This document shows, in pieces, positions 4,002 through 34,221 of a stretch of 35,362 bases of DNA; within the stretch, counting starts at the first letter, position 1, and each line of letters starts with the position of its first letter. The notes beneath the pieces are model-generated. The model was given only the letters and a program-made list of their open reading frames with translations, did no database searches and was not told where the DNA came from. The DNA comes from a virus: positions 1 to 35,362 of IMG/VR virus record IMGVR_UViG_3300028920_000175; one strand, 5' to 3'. A program made the position numbers and the translations under genes.

Positions 4002-6053
4002 TTAAAAATAAGGTTCGATAATTGATCTACAATTTGAACCCCAACAAACCCTACCATTTCTACGAACTAAAAGAGTATGATGTTTAGGTAAAGATATATC
4101 ATATACATAACCATCATAATTTTTTACCCATTTTTGAATATTTGGATGCCTATATTTTGAATTTATTTCTCTTATATCCCAAATATCATAATTAATAATA
4201 TAATTACCATTTCTAAATTCCTGTATATTACCTTTAACTTTTCTTAGAGTATAACTACAACTTTTACCTATTTTAATTAAGATCTCTCCAATATCATCTG
4301 CTAATGTTTTTGATGTCGTGAAATATATTCTACAACCTTCAAAATTACCATCTTTGTATTGAGATGGTTTTGCTATATGTCCATCACAAAAAATAAAAGA
4401 ATCTAAAAATATTTTTAGATAATTTGATGATAATTTTTTGATTGCATTCGGTACAAATTTCAAATTACACTTTCCAAATTGTTCACAATATAAACCTAAT
4501 CTTTTATCATATATATTTATTTTTCCCTTAGTCATAGTCACATTCTTAAATCCCATTTTAGATACCCTATCAAAAATATATTTTTGATTATCTGTTTGCG
4601 CTATAACTGGATAACCTTGCCTTAAACTACCATCGGCCAAATAATAGCCCATAAACTCACAAAAATCATTCATATCTATATATAAATCATCTATAACCAT
4701 CATTTCTACATCTTCACCTTTCCAATTTGATGATAAATATAATTTTACTTCTGAACCTGATTCTTGAAATTGTTTTATATCCTCAAAATAATATTTTAAA
4801 CTTCTACCTTTTTTACCATTATCTACTCTTTTATAATAAAACATTTTATGATCTGGAGTTACAAGTAAATCTAATGAATGTTGATTGTTAGTTAAATATA
4901 ACATTTCACCTTTATGATGCTTTTTTATTACATTTATACTCTCAACCCATTCTAAATTTTTTGTTTCTGGATTAAGACTAAGGCACTTGTCACCTACATT
5001 AACATCTGAAAACATTACAAAACCTTTTTCAGTATAAACTTCTGTAACGCTATCATAGCAACTAAGGTGAATAGGTGGCATTGAAACACCTGCTTTAATT
5101 AAAGATTCAGAAACTTTGGCATCATTTAACTTTTGGCCTTGTCTTAATTTAAATTCTGATAAATTTCTCTTAAATGGTGCTATTTCTTTTAAACTTTCTA
5201 CACTATCAGATTCTAATATTTTATTCATATGGGTCATTGCCTGACTCACCTCAAAAACTCGGCCATTCATTTGTAAACAGATTGTACTTGTAACTTTATC
5301 AATAACCGACCGCCAAATATAACTTTTTATCCCTGCTTGGTGCATATAATTTAATTGACCATAATTTTGGGCCATTGTAACATTTGTGGCCGATAAATTT
5401 TTAAAATATGCGTTTATTGCTTTTTGCCCTTGGGCCTTTACACTTGGTGGTACGGCCAAATTACCACCTAATTTTTTAGTTAAATTATTTTTTAAAAACT
5501 CACCTGCTTGGGCCTTATTCAAACCTTTATCAACTACACTTTCTTTAATTATTTTACTTACACTTGGTTTTAAATTTTTTGGGTAATGGTCGCCTATTGC
5601 AATGTTTTCCAATCTTGTTACATCGTCAATTATACCTTTATCAGTTTTATCTAATTTAACCTTTACTACTTTTTGACTTTTTACTTTACTGGAAAATGAA
5701 TCTAAGTTTAAAACATAAATTTTTTCCATATCTTTTTTTACACGTTTATCTACTTTTTTATCAAAATCCTTAAATCTTGAATCTAAAATAAACATTGTTC
5801 GATCTAAATCTTTGTTTGTATAAGGTTTACTTTTTGCACCTAAATCATTAACACTTAAAACTTTATTAATTGCTTTAGTTGCTATCTTATTCCACTCACC
5901 AACTATATAATTAACTAAATCATTTTCTATTTTTCTAATCTTTGCATTGTTATTTTTTACGGCCTTTTGAATAACATCATTTAAGAGATTAAATATAGAT
6001 AACCTTTCTTGATAACTGAATGCTTTTTTAATTTGTAAAGGATGCATGACCAT
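4002..6053 (-). CDS. Mu F / SPP1 gp7-type head morphogenesis protein, intein-interrupted
   Basis: 683-residue precursor. Residues 1-331 plus the last nine form the host protein: a long helical N-terminal part, then a Phage_Mu_F-like domain with KSYIWRSVIDKVTSTICLQM (the W...D..T...C signature), GRVFEVS and MPPIHLS joined to CRSIIEPYF. Without the intein the end reads PPIHLSCRS, the conserved family terminus (PPxHxNCRS). Proteins of this family are minor capsid components made next to the portal and help head assembly. Residues 332-674 are an intein (separate entry), so mature extein is about 340 residues, normal for the family. Starts 3 nt beyond the portal stop codon with GAGGA upstream, implying translational coupling. 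Confidence 0.88.
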   Translation of the reverse strand: MVMHPLQIKKAFSYQERLSIFNLLNDVIQKAVKNNNAKIRKIENDLVNYIVGEWNKIATKAINKVLSVNDLGAKSKPYTNKDLDRTMFILDSRFKDFDKKVDKRVKKDMEKIYVLNLDSFSSKVKSQKVVKVKLDKTDKGIIDDVTRLENIAIGDHYPKNLKPSVSKIIKESVVDKGLNKAQAGEFLKNNLTKKLGGNLAVPPSVKAQGQKAINAYFKNLSATNVTMAQNYGQLNYMHQAGIKSYIWRSVIDKVTSTICLQMNGRVFEVSQAMTHMNKILESDSVESLKEIAPFKRNLSEFKLRQGQKLNDAKVSESLIKAGVSMPPIHLSCYDSVTEVYTEKGFVMFSDVNVGDKCLSLNPETKNLEWVESINVIKKHHKGEMLYLTNNQHSLDLLVTPDHKMFYYKRVDNGKKGRSLKYYFEDIKQFQESGSEVKLYLSSNWKGEDVEMMVIDDLYIDMNDFCEFMGYYLADGSLRQGYPVIAQTDNQKYIFDRVSKMGFKNVTMTKGKINIYDKRLGLYCEQFGKCNLKFVPNAIKKLSSNYLKIFLDSFIFCDGHIAKPSQYKDGNFEGCRIYFTTSKTLADDIGEILIKIGKSCSYTLRKVKGNIQEFRNGNYIINYDIWDIREINSKYRHPNIQKWVKNYDGYVYDISLPKHHTLLVRRNGRVCWGSNCRSIIEPYF
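4032..5060 (-). other. LAGLIDADG intein inside the gp7-like gene
   Basis: 343-residue in-frame insertion (residues 332-674). Block A begins at Cys1 (CYDSVTEVYTEKGF) with NVGDKCLSL; block B has the TxxH box TPDH; two LAGLIDADG endonuclease motifs are visible, FMGYYLADGSL (about 467) and FLDSFIFCDGHI (about 549); block F reads VYDISLPKHHTLLVRRNG. The C-terminus is WGSN followed by Cys+1 of the extein, so splicing chemistry is Cys1, Asn-terminal and Cys+1. The usual penultimate His is Ser here, which some active inteins tolerate. A complete homing endonuclease domain suggests this element can still spread. The insertion site is the invariant CRS of the head protein. Confidence 0.92.
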
Positions 6054-7889: not shown

Positions 7890-9833
7890 CTATATTAAAT
7901 CAGGTTCATTTTCTCTTTGTTTCTTTTTACCTTTAAAAGCAACTCTAATAGCAATATCTAACGCATCAAATAAATCTTTGTAACGACCATCGGGCATTTG
8001 CAAAAGGTGTTCTTGTAATTCGTGCATACCTTCAAGTAAAAATACTTGGCCTCTTTCAAAATATGCTGATAATTTCCACGCCCTCATTGTTTTATCTGTT
8101 TCTGTAAAAACTGGTACGGCCCTTACTTTTGATAACTCTTTATCTGCTTTCATATCTTGTAATATTGCTTCTTGATATCCATTGGCCTCAATGCCAACCC
8201 TAATAGGGTCGTATTTTAAATGTTTTTCATCTATAACTTTTTTTTGATCTGTATAATGAGTTATCCTATTATAATAGTTTAACACAAAAATATTAAATGT
8301 CTTTGGGTCTACACCTATAGTTACATGAGCGAATTTATCGGCATTTTCTTTTTGCTTTATTGCTAAATCTACACCTTGAAATATCATTAACTCTTTTAAT
8401 TTTAAATTTTCAATCCTTGCCCAATTAAACCAGTCAACTTTAAATATTTTACCTTTCATTGCCCTAACATCATTCATATATTGACTGTTAAAAATAATAG
8501 TACCTTGATCTTTTTTCTTTTTTAACAAAAATTTAACACTAAACTTTGAAGGCCAAAAGGAAATTAATTTTTGATGTTCTTTTAATTTTTCAGCGTTTTG
8601 TAAATTCTTTTTCTTAATTAGTGCTTTTATTCTTATATAATATCGTTTTAATACTTTTCCTTTACTATTTTTTTTAGTAAATACCGATTCAATTAAAGAA
8701 CCATATAAATCAGTAGGATGGTATCTTGTACCTATTATGTTCATTTCTCCATCTGGTTCTAAAGTTGGGTCAAGTATCTTATAAAACCATGTATATAATT
8801 TTAATCTTTGTACCTCTGTTTTACTATTTTCTTCATCAACTAAATCATCTGCATAAATTTTATCAAAATGTTTTGACGCTAAGGCCCCTGTATATCCTAC
8901 CGTTGTTACTGTTTCTTCTTTATGGGCCGCTGTCCTTGTATTAATAACAATGGCCCCATCATTCCAAATACGGCCAACTAAATCACCAAATATCTGTACA
9001 AATTTTTTACTTTGAATTTTTTGTTTTATTTCTGATAAAAACGCTATAGCATTGGCATCTGTTTTTGATGCAATTAAAATTCTAATATTTGGATTCTGTA
9101 ATATATCCAATATTATTTTTGAAATAGTTAATACGGTTGAATTATGAGTATAAATATTCTGGGCCACAAAATTATGATTTTTTAATGTTTGTAAATCATA
9201 AGTTTCTTTTATCCCTTTATACTCAATTGACTCTATTGAATCCCAAAAAACATCTGAACCCATTTTTAAATTTCTAGGTACTGCAATTTTTTCACCTATT
9301 TCAAAATCAGAAAGTTTTTTCCATTCATTAAAAGACCTATATCTATGGTCTAATGTTGATGTTATTTCACGACCACTTTTTAATTTTAATGTATAAACTT
9401 TTTTTCTACCTGATTTAACCTTAGCAACAACTTTATCAACATCCTGTTTTAAAGTTTTATCATTAAGAGATAATATTTTATCTCCTACTTTAATATCTTT
9501 TATTTTTTTTATATCACCATTTGATAAACTAATCTTGACTGATTCACATAAGCATTTACCGCTACCCCTTGGTGCTAAAAGTAAATGCCATTTTTGATTT
9601 TCTAATTTTCTATATGAATATGTATTATGATAAAACATCAATAAATGAAAATCCATAACATCTGTATAACCTAAAACTTCACGCATTAATAAATCAATTC
9701 TATTATGATTTATTATTTGATCTTTTAAAAATGCGTTTCTTTTTAATTCAGTTAGTTTAATGTTATCAATTGCCTTTTGACGCTCTTTAATTTTTTTTAA
9801 ATGTTTTGGATTCTGTATAAAATCTAGGCCCAT
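7890..9833 (-). CDS. terL: Terminase large subunit, intein-interrupted
   Basis: 647-residue precursor. Extein: residues 1-93 and 232-647. The ATPase Walker A is LAPRGSGK joined to STVLTISK after splicing. Walker B is the region KIYADDLVDEEN, followed by GTRYHPTDLYG (coupling motif). The C-terminal RNase H-like nuclease domain shows FQGVDLAI (first Asp), VGIEANGYQEAI and DLFDALDIAI (last Asp). The protein powers DNA packaging and cuts the concatemer. The mature size, about 509 residues, is typical. Three nucleotides separate it from the small-subunit stop codon, and AGGA lies upstream of the ATG. The intein disrupts the ATP-binding loop, so the enzyme is dead unless splicing works. Confidence 0.93.
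   Translation of the reverse strand: MGLDFIQNPKHLKKIKERQKAIDNIKLTELKRNAFLKDQIINHNRIDLLMREVLGYTDVMDFHLLMFYHNTYSYRKLENQKWHLLLAPRGSGKCLCESVKISLSNGDIKKIKDIKVGDKILSLNDKTLKQDVDKVVAKVKSGRKKVYTLKLKSGREITSTLDHRYRSFNEWKKLSDFEIGEKIAVPRNLKMGSDVFWDSIESIEYKGIKETYDLQTLKNHNFVAQNIYTHNSTVLTISKIILDILQNPNIRILIASKTDANAIAFLSEIKQKIQSKKFVQIFGDLVGRIWNDGAIVINTRTAAHKEETVTTVGYTGALASKHFDKIYADDLVDEENSKTEVQRLKLYTWFYKILDPTLEPDGEMNIIGTRYHPTDLYGSLIESVFTKKNSKGKVLKRYYIRIKALIKKKNLQNAEKLKEHQKLISFWPSKFSVKFLLKKKKDQGTIIFNSQYMNDVRAMKGKIFKVDWFNWARIENLKLKELMIFQGVDLAIKQKENADKFAHVTIGVDPKTFNIFVLNYYNRITHYTDQKKVIDEKHLKYDPIRVGIEANGYQEAILQDMKADKELSKVRAVPVFTETDKTMRAWKLSAYFERGQVFLLEGMHELQEHLLQMPDGRYKDLFDALDIAIRVAFKGKKKQRENEPDLI
9141..9554 (-). 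other. Mini-intein in the TerL P-loop
   Basis: 138-residue in-frame insertion (residues 94-231) placed between the Walker A Lys and the following Ser. Block A starts at Cys1 (CLCESVKISLSNGD) with IKVGDKILSL; block B has ITSTLDHRY (TxxH = TLDH); block F reads YDLQTLKNHNFVAQN and ends THN before Ser+1. All splicing residues are present, including the penultimate His. There is no room for a homing endonuclease, so it is a natural mini-intein that cannot home by itself. Loss of function would block packaging ATPase activity, so removal must be precise. Confidence 0.93.
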
Positions 9834-17079: not shown

Positions 17080-17415
17080 TTAAGCACCTTTTTTAAAGTT
17101 TACTTTAAAGTTTATTTCCAACCCATTTCTATCTAAAGAATCCTCAACCTTAGCTAAAGAATCTTTAACTGCATAAAAAACATATTGGTCTACTGGCATT
17201 TCTAACTTGGTTGCTATTTCAACAACTTTATCAACGCTCGGTATTTCTAACCCTTTTTCAATGTTATTTAACCTTAAAACACTAACACCAATTAAATCAG
17301 CAAATTCTTTTTTACTCATTTCTAAACATAACCTTTCAGTTTTAATTATACTGGAAAAGGTTATTGGCCCTAAATTTAATTCCTTTAAAAATGTTTTTGC
17401 ATTTTTAGTAGTCAT
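17080..17415 (-). CDS. XRE-family antitoxin
   Basis: 111 residues with a canonical helix-turn-helix: RLCLEMSKKEFADLIGVSVL, RLNNIEKGLEIPSVDKVVEI, ATKLEMPVDQYV. It is encoded directly after the RelE/HigB-like toxin, overlapping it by 11 nt, the normal HigBA order (toxin first). It should bind the toxin and repress the promoter at 18205-18233. The ~30 residues before the HTH and the C-terminal KVNFKKGA tail probably contact the toxin. Confidence 0.82.
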   Translation of the reverse strand: MTTKNAKTFLKELNLGPITFSSIIKTERLCLEMSKKEFADLIGVSVLRLNNIEKGLEIPSVDKVVEIATKLEMPVDQYVFYAVKDSLAKVEDSLDRNGLEINFKVNFKKGA

Positions 17416-17683
17416 GTTTATTCACCTCAATTACTTCAATTATTTCATATTTATTATTTCCAAGATCAATATAAATGGCCCTATATGATCTGGATAACCT
17501 TATTGATCTTTGGCCCTTCCTATTGCCCTGTAAAGGTTCATCATGATAACCCTTAACTTTCATTATAGATTGTATCCCTTTAGTTTCCACACCATCAACC
17601 CATAAATCAAATTTTCTAATTATATGAATCGGTAATCTCTTTAAATCTTTTTTTGCCTTATGACTAAGTTTAACTTTAGTCAT
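17405..17683 (-). CDS. RelE/ParE/HigB-family toxin
   Basis: 92 residues. The pattern VKLSHKAKKDLKRLPIHIIR, a KGYHDEPLQGNRKGQRSIRL segment, SRSYRAIYIDL and the end VIEVNKHDY fits the RelE/ParE superfamily, closest to HigB-like mRNA interferases (basic residues plus C-terminal His/Tyr). The product would cleave ribosome-bound mRNA unless held by the antitoxin. The ATG overlaps the stop of the preceding coiled-coil gene (TAATG). Confidence 0.85.
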   Translation of the reverse strand: MTKVKLSHKAKKDLKRLPIHIIRKFDLWVDGVETKGIQSIMKVKGYHDEPLQGNRKGQRSIRLSRSYRAIYIDLGNNKYEIIEVIEVNKHDY

Positions 17684-30666: not shown

Positions 30667-30808
30667 TTTTAAAATCCTTTTTAAAAAATGCTTTTATTTT
30701 TTTATTTACGGTATAATAAATCTTTTTACTAAATACCTCGCATCAAAATCTGTTTCATGTAAAGAAGTATTTGTTGTTATTATTACACTCATTTTACTTT
30801 CTGGTAAA

Positions 30809-30890
30809 CTGACATCTCCCCATGCCTAAAGGCAGGGGGTTCTTGCTTCCTGACATCTCCCCATGCCTAAAGGCAGGGGGTTCTTGCTTC
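30809..30890. repeat. Exact tandem duplication of the 41-bp right end
   Basis: Copies at 30809-30849 and 30850-30890 are identical, with no spacer. Each contains the right-end hairpin with stem CCCC..GGGG and GCCTTTAGGC. The tnpB stop codon lies in the inner copy. In this family the right end also forms the end of the guide (omega/reRNA) scaffold, so the duplication alters what sits next to it. Confidence 0.9.
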
Positions 30891-32009
30891 ACAGATTCCT
30901 CTAGTGAGGATATCTCCACAAGACTTCAGGACGCTGTCCACGCCCCTGTTTTTTATATTTATTGACGCGTTTATATCTCTATCATGATGAGTTTCACACT
31001 TAGGGCAAATCCATTCACGAATAAAAAGTTTAAGCTCTTTATTTACATGACCGCAATCGGAACATTCTTGTGAAGTTCTTTTGGGATCTATTTTTACAAA
31101 GTATTTCCCATACCATTCGCATTTGTATTCTAATTGTCTGAAAAATTCGCCCCAGTTCATATTTAGAATAGATCTTGCTAACTTATGATTTTTTACCATA
31201 TTTTTAATTTGCAATTTTTCTACTGAGATTAAATCGTGGTTTTTGACTAAATCTTTGCTGAGTTTATGCAAGAAATCATTTTTGATATTTGTTATTTTAT
31301 TCCAAATTCTTGCTATTTTTAGTTTCCATTTTTTAAAATGCTTGCTTCCTTTTCTGCATTTCGCTTGCTTTCTCTGGTAAAACTTCAGTTTTCCCTCGAT
31401 TTCTTTTAACTGATTAGGAGGATGATATTTTTTGCTATTTGACAGAGTGGCCATTGTTTTTATGCCGACATCAATACCTATTGAATCTTTTATCTCTTTA
31501 ATTTTTTCAGTTTTCTTTAAATCATCAATACAGAAAGAAACAAAATATTGACCGGCCGGATTTTTTGAAATTGTAGCAGTCTTAATTTCTCCACAAAATC
31601 TTCTTAGACCTCTACAATTCAAAAGACCAATTTTAGGGAATTTGATCTTGCTATACGAAACACTAACACTCCCAACAACTGAATATGATTGTTTATCTGA
31701 TTTTTTTTTGAATTTTGGGAATCCTTTTTTTTCTTTGAAAAACTTCCTGTAAGCAGAGTCTAAATGCCTTAACGATTGTTGCAATCCTTGAGCATTTGCA
31801 TCTTTTAAAAAGGCCCTCTCATCTGTTTTTTTCCAAAAAGTGAGCATTTTAGATATTTCAATTATAGACAAATTTTCCTTGTACTCTTCCCATCTATTGA
31901 TTTTAAGAGCAAGGGCCTGATTGTATACAAAACGCGCACAACCAAATGATATATTTAGTTGCTTAGTTTGTTCTTGTGTTGGATATACTCTAATTTTTAA
32001 TGCTCTCAT
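30867..32009 (-). CDS. tnpB: TnpB, RNA-guided nuclease
   Basis: 380 residues, typical TnpB length. The N-terminal helix-turn-helix part begins MRALKIRVYPTQEQTKQLNI with FVYNQALALK; RuvC catalytic residues are present in IGIDVGIKTMATL (Asp), LISVEKLQIKNM (Glu) and HHDRDINASINI (Asp). The zinc finger is CSDCGHVNKELK with ICPKCETHHD. TnpB cuts DNA guided by the omega RNA from the element's right end, keeping the element at its site. Codon use is richer in CTT/GCA than the phage genes around it, which suggests recent transfer. The frame is intact. Confidence 0.93.
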   Translation of the reverse strand: MRALKIRVYPTQEQTKQLNISFGCARFVYNQALALKINRWEEYKENLSIIEISKMLTFWKKTDERAFLKDANAQGLQQSLRHLDSAYRKFFKEKKGFPKFKKKSDKQSYSVVGSVSVSYSKIKFPKIGLLNCRGLRRFCGEIKTATISKNPAGQYFVSFCIDDLKKTEKIKEIKDSIGIDVGIKTMATLSNSKKYHPPNQLKEIEGKLKFYQRKQAKCRKGSKHFKKWKLKIARIWNKITNIKNDFLHKLSKDLVKNHDLISVEKLQIKNMVKNHKLARSILNMNWGEFFRQLEYKCEWYGKYFVKIDPKRTSQECSDCGHVNKELKLFIREWICPKCETHHDRDINASINIKNRGVDSVLKSCGDILTRGICEARTPCL

Positions 32010-32055: not shown

Positions 32056-32099
32056 CGCCGAAGGGCGTAGCCTTATATCCCCATAAATAAATTTAGGGG
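32056..32099 (-). repeat. Left-end hairpins of the IS element
   Basis: CGCC-GAAG-GGCG (32056-32067) and CCCC-ATAAATAAATTTA-GGGG (32079-32099) are imperfect hairpins near the left boundary, the usual subterminal structures recognised by TnpA. They lie between tnpB and the interrupted ORF. Confidence 0.65.
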
Positions 32100-32172
32100 T
32101 TTTACGGCCACATTTGATAATTTTTTAACAATCAACTTCTTATGCTCTGCTGTATAATCATTCCAATTCATT

Positions 32173-34221
32173 TTAAATTACTCCAAATTCTATTTTATTA
32201 AATTCAGGATTATTTCTTGTTATATGTTTTAACAATTTTTTTATTTTTATTCCGATTTCTTTAAATGTCATAAATGGTTCTGTTTGCAATAAACATGCAC
32301 ATTCACTTTTTGCACGATCTAAATAATATCTTAAATTAAGTTTATCACAAATATCTGTTACAAAATTATATGCTTTTTGTTCACGTTCAGATATTTTTAT
32401 TTCTTTTTTAGTATCTTTCAATTCTTCATATTTTTGTAAAACTAAATCACTAATTATCATTCTTAATTTATCATCAACTTTTTTATACTGAACATGCCAC
32501 GGTTTAAATTTCTGTAATATATCAAATTCAAACTCATTCAATTGTCTCATTGCTTTTTCTTCAATCTTATCAAATTCACTTCTTAAACCATCTTTACAAT
32601 CTCTTAAAAAATTTACTTTATTTTGATACTCTCTTTGGCCTACTTGCTTTGGTGAATTATATTCCCTTTTTCTTTTTGCTTCTTCCCTCTCAAATTTTAT
32701 ATCATTCAAGATTTTTTCAACTATCATACCTTTACCATCTTTATTCAATTTCAAATACTGGTCTAAAGATATTTCTATGTTTTCATTTTTATCTCTGTTA
32801 TGTGGCCACGCACCTTTTGTTTCTAATCTTTCAAATATTTTATAAAGCAAATGATTGTGACTATGACTTTTAAAGTATGAATTATTAGAAATTATTTTTC
32901 TTATGTCATTAATGTTTTTATGTCTATAGTCTTTTCCATTTTTACTTGGTGTAAGATTAAATCTACTTATCAAACCGAAGTTAGTATTTCTATTTTTTAC
33001 TTCATCAACTTTTAGTTTTTCTATAACTGGAATATCAACTTGATTAGTCTCAATTTTGAATGAAACATCTTTTACACCTTTCTTTGTTTCGATTTTTTTA
33101 ATTTCAGTTTGATTAGTCTCAAGGTTTTCAATTATATTTTCAAGTGTCACTTTTTCATCATCAACTTTTTCAACTTCTTTCAGATTAAATAAATCTTTAA
33201 AAATTTCTATAGTTCCTTTTAACGCAGTTAGTCCGAAAATTTTATCACTGGTTTTATTTTCTTTATCTGCACTACTTTCACTTAAAGGATTTATGGTACT
33301 TTCTACTCTATTATAATGTATGCATTTTTGTCGTTTTTCCGATGCATTTTTGTCATTTTCCGATGCATTTTTGTCATTTTCATTTTCTAAATTCTCTTTG
33401 ATAGTGGATTCTTTCTTTTTTGACTCACTGTATACATTATCTAAAAATCTGGGATGGATTATGTAACCATAGGATTTACCATCATGTGCCTGACATTTAT
33501 TTATATAAATTATTTCATCTTTCCCAAGTTTTGTTAAAGTAGTTTGTAATATTCTACCACAAACTTTATTTGATAAATCTGCAATCCCTTGAATTGAATT
33601 TGTATAAAAATCGTTATGGTATCCCTTTTTTAAAGTTTCATACAAAATAGTAAAAGCAACATAAACATCATTTGAATTATCTGCTTTTCTTATAATTTCA
33701 CATATTGTTTCAAGATCAATTTGTGTAAAAGATTTCCCTTCAATTTTTTTTGCTTTTTTAATTGAAAAATCAAAATATTTTTTTCTTTTTATTACGATTA
33801 AACCATCATCTATAAACGCATCTATACATCTTTGTATAGTCTTTAAACTTATTAATTTATTATCACCCTTAATTTCTTTTATTTCATTTTCAACTCTTAC
33901 AGCTAAATTATTTAACTTTATTAACTCAAAAGTATTTTCATATAAATTTGCTATTTTATTTAAAATTAAAAAAACAAGAAACTTTTTTGTACTATCTAAA
34001 GCATCATTAAAATATAAAACATTTTTTATATCTGAATCGTACATTTGTATAAAACATGCATTATCTCTTCTTATCAATTTTTTATGTTTATTAAATGAAT
34101 CAATGGGTAAGTTATCAATATCTAATTTATTGGGCGGCCTGCATTGCGTTTCTGATTTTTTTGCACTAAAATTGAAAATTTCTTTTGTATTATGTTTGAC
34201 AACTTCACTTAATTTTATCAT
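32173..34221 (-). CDS. Replication-initiator-like protein with embedded repeats
   Basis: 682 residues. Residues about 80-275 hold two winged-helix-like segments (KFLVFLILNKIANLYENTFE; LISLKTIQRCIDAFIDDGLI and SNKVCGRILQTTLTKLGKDE), the build of phage and plasmid initiators. A Lys/Glu/Asn-rich linker follows, including the repeated ENDKNAS from the DNA repeats at 33320-33383. The C-terminal 250 residues are charged helices. I infer an initiator or helicase-loader function from the N-terminal DNA-binding fold plus iterons in the gene; no direct replication motif (RCR, primase) is seen. ATG 34221 follows the stem-loop leader. Confidence 0.6.
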   Translation of the reverse strand: MIKLSEVVKHNTKEIFNFSAKKSETQCRPPNKLDIDNLPIDSFNKHKKLIRRDNACFIQMYDSDIKNVLYFNDALDSTKKFLVFLILNKIANLYENTFELIKLNNLAVRVENEIKEIKGDNKLISLKTIQRCIDAFIDDGLIVIKRKKYFDFSIKKAKKIEGKSFTQIDLETICEIIRKADNSNDVYVAFTILYETLKKGYHNDFYTNSIQGIADLSNKVCGRILQTTLTKLGKDEIIYINKCQAHDGKSYGYIIHPRFLDNVYSESKKKESTIKENLENENDKNASENDKNASEKRQKCIHYNRVESTINPLSESSADKENKTSDKIFGLTALKGTIEIFKDLFNLKEVEKVDDEKVTLENIIENLETNQTEIKKIETKKGVKDVSFKIETNQVDIPVIEKLKVDEVKNRNTNFGLISRFNLTPSKNGKDYRHKNINDIRKIISNNSYFKSHSHNHLLYKIFERLETKGAWPHNRDKNENIEISLDQYLKLNKDGKGMIVEKILNDIKFEREEAKRKREYNSPKQVGQREYQNKVNFLRDCKDGLRSEFDKIEEKAMRQLNEFEFDILQKFKPWHVQYKKVDDKLRMIISDLVLQKYEELKDTKKEIKISEREQKAYNFVTDICDKLNLRYYLDRAKSECACLLQTEPFMTFKEIGIKIKKLLKHITRNNPEFNKIEFGVI
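33320..33383. repeat. Three iteron-like direct repeats inside the initiator gene
   Basis: Copies at 33320-33341 (22 bp), 33342-33362 and 33363-33383 (21 bp each). Each starts ATGCATTTTTGTC and continues TTTTCCG or TTTTCAT. They are in frame for the protein (a repeated seven-residue ENDKNAS), yet also form an evenly spaced array of the palindromic core ATGCAT with helical period. The layout parallels lambda, where iterons lie in the initiator gene O. Confidence 0.75.

What the first reader, a model, noticed from the sequence alone, without database searches (positions are those of the whole stretch)
30809..30890. Exact tandem duplication of the TnpB right end, shifting the guide
The 41-bp right end is present twice with no spacer. 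In TnpB systems the RNA scaffold ends at the right end and the flanking bases form the guide. If the inner copy ends the scaffold, the guide would be the second copy itself (GAAGCAAGAACCCCCTG), not the phage flank. If the outer one does, the guide is TTTACCAGAAAGTAAAATGA. The duplication may disarm or re-target the nuclease.
Basis: partly seen in the sequence, partly recalled or inferred. Interest (0 to 1): 0.65.

Follow-up and report, generated by a model that had tools for sequence, protein, structure and literature searches.

The report
TnpB element with doubled right end
A small jumping gene in a phage carries its right-hand end, which also ends its guide RNA, twice in a row; both copies look usable, and the predicted RNA fold keeps the normal guide instead of disarming the enzyme, although an assembly error cannot be ruled out.

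Summary
The repeat is real in the record: 41 bp, exactly two perfect copies, 30809-30849 and 30850-30890. It lies at the right end of an IS200/IS605-type tnpB-only element, about 32116 to 30809 on the minus strand, apparently inserted 3' of TTAT in a small phage ORF. Comparison with relatives shows that elements of this type end exactly after TCAN, so the repeat's outer edge is the transposon terminus. Each copy carries a whole transposase right-end signal (guide GAAC, bulged-T hairpin, cleavage site TCAG) and the 3' part of the wRNA scaffold (stem-2 strand, stem 4, pseudoknot strand GUC). 'Disarmed' is not supported. The computed fold merges the two stem-4 hairpins into one longer stem and leaves the outer GUCAG next to the phage flank, so the flank guide is kept. 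The inner register would make the guide a copy of the right end, matching only the joint left by excision at the inner end. No tandem end was seen in 70 relatives. An untrimmed assembly overlap, of which one apparent example turned up in a relative's genome, remains the main rival. Ordinary mechanism, unusual arrangement; modest interest.

The parts
30867..32009 (-). tnpB, 380 aa, RNA-guided nuclease of the ISDra2 TnpB type; RuvC residues D180, E264 and D343/D345 (HDRDIN) and a CxxC...CxxC zinc ribbon present; the C-terminus is encoded by the inner right end
   Evidence: Pfam OrfB_IS605, Cas12f1-like_TNB and HTH_OrfB_IS605; phmmer to ISDra2 TnpB 8bf8/8h1j E 4.6e-71; residues located
32117..32120 (-). 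TTAT: inferred left cleavage site CL, insertion target and TAM
   Evidence: pairs with GL AAAA by the IS608 code (inference); joining the flanks here restores a 24-aa ORF
32079..32116 (-). left end: CAAATGTGGCCGT-AAAA(GL, 32103-32100)-hairpin CCCC TAAA TTTA TTTA T GGGG (32099-32079) with bulged T
   Evidence: same hairpin layout as the right end
30928..30946 (-). wRNA stem 1, 7 bp, loop GGACA (30939-30935); GAC is the inferred pseudoknot partner
   Evidence: loop GGACA also in L051, L055 and Brevibacillus relatives
30919..30922 (-). CUUG, 5' strand of wRNA stem 2 (pairs with CAAG in the 41-nt unit)
   Evidence: CUUG/CAAG versus CCUG/CAGG in relatives
30850..30890 (-). inner right end (copy 1): GAAG-CAAG-A, GR GAAC (30883-30880), hairpin 30879-30859, CR TCAG (30853-30850)
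   Evidence: GR/CR rule
30809..30849 (-). outer right end (copy 2), identical: GR 30842-30839, hairpin 30838-30818, CR TCAG 30812-30809
30789..30808 (-). phage flank TTTACCAGAAAGTAAAATGA = guide in the outer register
   Evidence: follows TCAG of the outer right end
30830..30849 (-). first 20 nt of copy 2, GAAGCAAGAACCCCCTGCCT = guide in the inner register

Best explanation
A tnpB-only IS200/IS605 element (1,267 bp to the inner right end, 1,308 bp to the outer) sits 3' of TTAT in a phage gene and has gained an exact second copy of its 41-bp right end. Each copy is a complete right end: it can be cut by a transposase acting in trans, and it can close the wRNA scaffold. In the transcript the two stem-4 hairpins most likely merge into one long stem, with stem 2 formed by the inner CAAG and the pseudoknot by the outer GUC. 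The scaffold then ends at the outer copy and the guide remains the phage flank, aimed at the empty site TTAT-TTTACCAGAAAG. A minor share of RNA may use the inner copy, with the guide GAAGCAAGAACC..., which fits only the joint left by excision at the inner end. Shown: the repeat, the element anatomy, the end rule, the predicted fold. Inferred: TTAT as TAM, mobility, RNA use, nuclease activity.
For: Exact repeat. TnpB homologous to ISDra2 TnpB with intact RuvC motifs. IS608 code GAAT/TCAA and AAAG/TTAC (PMC5934647) extends to relatives: GAAT/TCAA, GAAG/TCAC, GAAC/TCAG (L055, G546). Multi-copy relatives show conservation stopping right after TCAG or TCAC. LE and RE hairpins share the bulged-T layout. 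Joined flanks restore an ORF whose stop overlaps the next start. Ensemble sampling: 99.8% merged stem 4 with inner stem 2. Forced folds: outer guide via merged stem -63.2, inner -58.7, outer with separate hairpins -55.8 kcal/mol; with the guide kept single-stranded -61.6, -48.4, -54.2. In ISDra2 the stem-4 UUUA loop joins the crRNA-like and tracrRNA-like parts, and stem 3b can be removed without loss (PMC10097598). L051 and L068 have an extra hairpin between stem 2 and stem 4.
Against: The fold leaves out the pseudoknot, protein binding and co-transcriptional order. A transcript ending at the inner copy folds as a normal scaffold first, so the inner register could be captured early. [quoted passage not shown] No TnpA in the record. 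No empty site found. TAM not confirmed by multiple insertions. Assembly artefact not excluded.
Confidence: 0.45

Rival explanations
1. Assembly artefact. The assembly graph branches exactly at a transposon end because flanks differ between insertion sites; two contigs sharing a k-mer overlap of 41 were joined without trimming, giving a false tandem copy that ends at the transposon terminus.
For: An apparent case of this kind was met: L084 has its scaffold twice, the second an exact 127-bp copy after 10 N, ending at the same right end; 127 is a common assembler k (own knowledge). It would explain why the outer edge of the unit is the transposon end.
Against: No N in the window. 41 is not an assembler k that I know from common JGI settings (own knowledge). 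The whole 82-bp array fits within one short read. No other 41-bp duplication in the record. No other copy of this element in the record to make a branch.
Confidence: 0.25
2. The inner register dominates. TnpB captures the first complete scaffold, the guide is the second right-end copy, and the nuclease no longer protects the site in the phage: it is disarmed, or acts only on the joint left by excision at the inner end.
For: The inner scaffold is contiguous and folds normally when transcription has reached only the end of copy 1. 3' padding is tolerated and only about 12 guide nt matter in Dra2 TnpB (PMC10278001). GAAGCAAGAACC has no TTAT-flanked site in the record.
Against: The full transcript strongly favours the merged fold. 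The inner guide would be locked in the outer hairpin, about 10 kcal/mol to open.
Confidence: 0.2
3. The duplication arose through the element's own chemistry: a TnpA cut at TCAG, or joining of the free right end to a second copy of the same end, and not by ordinary replication slippage.
For: The unit ends exactly at the transposon terminus with no microhomology at either junction.
Against: The inner boundary CTGT|GAAG does not fit the TTAT or TCAG code, and no intermediate or second example is known.
Confidence: 0.1

Closest known systems
ISDra2 (D. radiodurans) TnpB and its wRNA (PMC8612924, PMC10097598)
   Same: homologous TnpB (E 4.6e-71); wRNA from the 3' end of tnpB plus RE; pseudoknot of the 3' end with the stem-1 loop, stem 2, stem 4 with UUUA loop; guide is the flank
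   Different: single RE and TnpA present; TAM TTGAT (here TTAT inferred)
IS608 (H. pylori) transposition ends (PMC5934647)
   Same: bulged-T hairpins at both ends (the bulge in IS608 from own knowledge); GL/CL and GR/CR pairing code; cut right after CR
   Different: here GAAC/TCAG and AAAA/TTAT, two right ends, no TnpA in the record
tnpB relatives in Brevibacillus, Bacillota MAGs and viral contigs (L002-L086)
   Same: about 30-47% TnpB identity, same scaffold plan, RE ending after TCAN
   Different: none of 70 loci tested has a tandem RE; L084 has one that looks like an assembly overlap
H. hydrogeniformans IS605 type-2 right end (PMC7290912)
   Same: right end lengthened in a natural element
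   Different: a 28-nt insert that disrupts hairpins, not a duplication of the whole end

Membership tests
TnpB (IS200/IS605 OrfB) | OrfB_IS605 and zinc-ribbon domains with RuvC D-E-D | tested here: met
IS200/IS605 element ends | subterminal hairpins with 5' guide tetranucleotides matching the cleavage sites | tested here: met
   GAAC/TCAG twice, AAAA/TTAT once; rule supported on relatives
IS200/IS605 element ends | TnpA Y1 transposase in the element | tested here: not met
   PF01797 absent from the record; elements with isolated tnpB are known (PMC8612924), so filed as a tnpB-only element that needs TnpA in trans
IS200/IS605 element ends | insertion 3' of a fixed tetra- or pentanucleotide, shown by an empty site | tested here: inconclusive
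   no empty-site relative found; joined flanks restore an ORF
TnpB wRNA | scaffold with pseudoknot between its 3' end and the stem-1 loop | tested here: met
   GAC loop / GUC end in the window by inspection; in 49 candidate RE ends 30 have a matching loop for -5..-3, against 9-15 for five control triplets (the set includes false ends, and the script's stem filter missed the window's own stem 1, which has G-U pairs)
TnpB wRNA | guide taken from the flank next to the right end | not testable with these tools
   needs RNA sequencing; two registers possible here
CRISPR-like array (repeat-spacer) | repeats separated by variable spacers | tested here: not met
   no spacer between the two copies

The most novel reading that the evidence does not exclude
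A TnpB element with two working right ends that makes two guide RNAs: one fixed and self-encoded, recognising the joint left when the transposase uses the inner end, and one from the flank, recognising the joint left by the outer end. The nuclease would guard both excision outcomes.
Probability: 0.07. Interest if true: 0.65.

Novelty: new variant of a known kind. Interest (0 to 1): 0.3.

Why it matters
In TnpB elements one short sequence sets both where the transposon is cut and where the guide starts. A natural tandem copy of exactly that sequence is a clean test of which copy the RNA and the transposase choose, and of whether the scaffold tolerates a lengthened stem 4. If real, it also shows one way by which an element could acquire a fixed, self-encoded guide.

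Tried and rejected
Rfam search of the window: no match. Tandem-RE pattern in 2.9 million viral contigs: one hit, L024, spurious on inspection. Exact RE core in viral contigs: none. LE pattern in viral contigs: two hits, both spurious. Empty site and solo-RE joint patterns: none. Neighbour protein and portal protein as queries for related phages: none. RE scaffold in plasmids and phages: only short matches to the hairpin. My constraint 'without cross pairs' was faulty (its P value is not used); one search replaces it. Changing the energy parameter set gave identical energies, so it is not used as a robustness test. An inner-boundary origin by TnpA mis-cutting at CTGT was considered; it does not fit the guide code. 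A CRISPR-like array was rejected because there is no spacer.

Full report
Observation. The 41-bp unit CTGACATCTCCCCATGCCTAAAGGCAGGGGGTTCTTGCTTC occurs twice without a spacer at 30809-30849 and 30850-30890, 100% identical. No other perfect direct repeat of this length and short period exists in the window. The boundaries are unambiguous because neither junction has microhomology.

What it belongs to. On the minus strand, 30867-32009 encodes a 380-aa TnpB with OrfB_IS605, Cas12f1-like TNB and helix-turn-helix domains. It is clearly homologous to ISDra2 TnpB of solved structures 8bf8 and 8h1j (E 4.6e-71). The RuvC motifs (D180; E264; HDRDIN with D343/D345) and the zinc ribbon are present. The record is a 35-kb viral contig with portal, terminase, head, integrase and RusA-like genes. 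It has no Y1 transposase. The nearest relatives found are 43-47% identical.

The ends. IS608 ends have a hairpin, a guide tetranucleotide just 5' of it and a cleavage site that pairs with the guide: GL AAAG/CL TTAC and GR GAAT/CR TCAA (PMC5934647). In the window each 41-bp unit has GAAC, a hairpin CCCC-TGCC-TTTA-GGCA-T-GGGG with a bulged T, and TCAG. The left end has TTAT, 13 nt, AAAA, and the hairpin CCCC-TAAA-TTTA-TTTA-T-GGGG with a T bulged at the same place. By the IS608 rule AAAA asks for TTAT, which is there. In relatives the fourth positions of GR and CR go together: GAAT/TCAA, GAAG/TCAC and GAAC/TCAG. In genome G546, four copies at different sites share TTGAT at the left and lose similarity right after TCAG at the right; G532 and G396 do so after TCAC. 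Thus the outer edge of the repeat is the transposon end, and each unit is a complete right end. If the window's flanks are joined at TTAT|TTTACC, a small ORF MNWNDYTAEHKKLIVKKLFYQKVK is restored whose TGA overlaps the next ATG. That supports these limits but is not a found empty site; none was found.

The RNA. ISDra2 wRNA has stem 1 with a loop that pairs with positions -5 to -3, stem 2, stem 3, stem 4 with a UUUA loop, and then the guide (PMC10097598). The window has the same plan: stem 1 GGGGCGU/GCGUCCU with loop GGACA, CUUG pairing with CAAG, an AU-rich stem 3, stem 4 with UUUA, and the end GUCAG. The loop GAC can pair with GUC. Relatives with end UUC tend to have GAA or GGA in the loop, and L019, with loop CAA, ends GUUG. 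The repeat unit therefore holds the stem-2 3' strand, stem 4, the pseudoknot strand and the last scaffold base; the 5' half is single.

Which guide. Three arrangements were compared. Merged stem 4 with the outer pseudoknot strand free: ensemble -63.2 kcal/mol. Inner scaffold with separate hairpins: -58.7. Outer scaffold with separate hairpins: -55.8. When the guide must be single-stranded: -61.6, -48.4 and -54.2. Free sampling put 99.8% of structures in the merged form with inner stem 2. That form amounts to an insertion in the stem-4 loop, the place where ISDra2's crRNA-like and tracrRNA-like parts are joined. It leaves the outer GUCAG in front of the phage flank, so the normal guide is kept. 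L051 and L068 show that relatives carry an extra hairpin between stem 2 and stem 4. Limits: no pseudoknot, no protein and no kinetics in the model. A transcript that has reached only the end of the inner copy folds as a normal scaffold, and TnpB tolerates 3' extra sequence (PMC10278001), so some inner-register RNA is plausible.

Coupling of cut and guide. This is inference from the anatomy. Excision at the outer end would leave TTAT-TTTACC..., the target of the outer guide. Excision at the inner end would leave TTAT-GAAGCAAG..., the target of the inner guide. Neither target exists with its TTAT in the present record. So the duplication does not by itself uncouple guide and excision, and 'disarmed' is not the expected outcome.

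How rare. None of 70 TnpB loci examined, a few of them redundant, has a tandem copy downstream. A pattern search of the viral collection for an RE end followed by GAAGCA found nothing real, although that pattern covers only ends of this sequence type. I found no paper describing a duplicated right end in the library searched; that is weak evidence, since most subscription papers are not held.

Artefact. L084, one of three copies in genome G396, shows the scaffold repeated as an exact 127-bp copy after 10 N, again ending at the right end. It looks like an untrimmed contig overlap at a graph branch, and such branches fall at transposon ends. A 41-bp overlap joined without N would look like the window. 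I put this at one in four. Reads would settle it.

Verdict. It is an IS200/IS605 tnpB-only element of known kind with an unusual tandem right end, most likely still armed with the flank guide.

Noticed in passing
L084 (G396:C2:397100-399800): wRNA scaffold present twice: an exact 127-bp second copy after 10 N, ending at the same right end; looks like an untrimmed assembly overlap at a transposon end.
   Followed up: partly
window 7890-9833 and 4002-6053: Intein-like insertions in the terminase large subunit (strong match) and in a minor head protein (weak, below Pfam cut-off).
   Followed up: no
window 30789-30808: The flank guide TTTACCAGAAAGTAAA can itself form a 5-bp hairpin (TTTAC/GTAAA).
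   Followed up: no
window 32171 and 30690-30808: The element splits a small phage ORF; joined flanks give a 24-aa ORF with a TGA/ATG overlap to the next one.
   Followed up: partly
window 17405-17683: RelE-like toxin (PHROG 1213) followed by a helix-turn-helix-like ORF at 17080-17415, a likely toxin-antitoxin pair.
   Followed up: no
window 33320-33381: 21-bp tandem repeat, 2.9 copies, within the coding sequence of the 682-aa ORF.
   Followed up: no
L051, L068: Relatives whose wRNA scaffold has an extra hairpin between the stem-2 strand GAAGCAGGAA and stem 4.
   Followed up: partly
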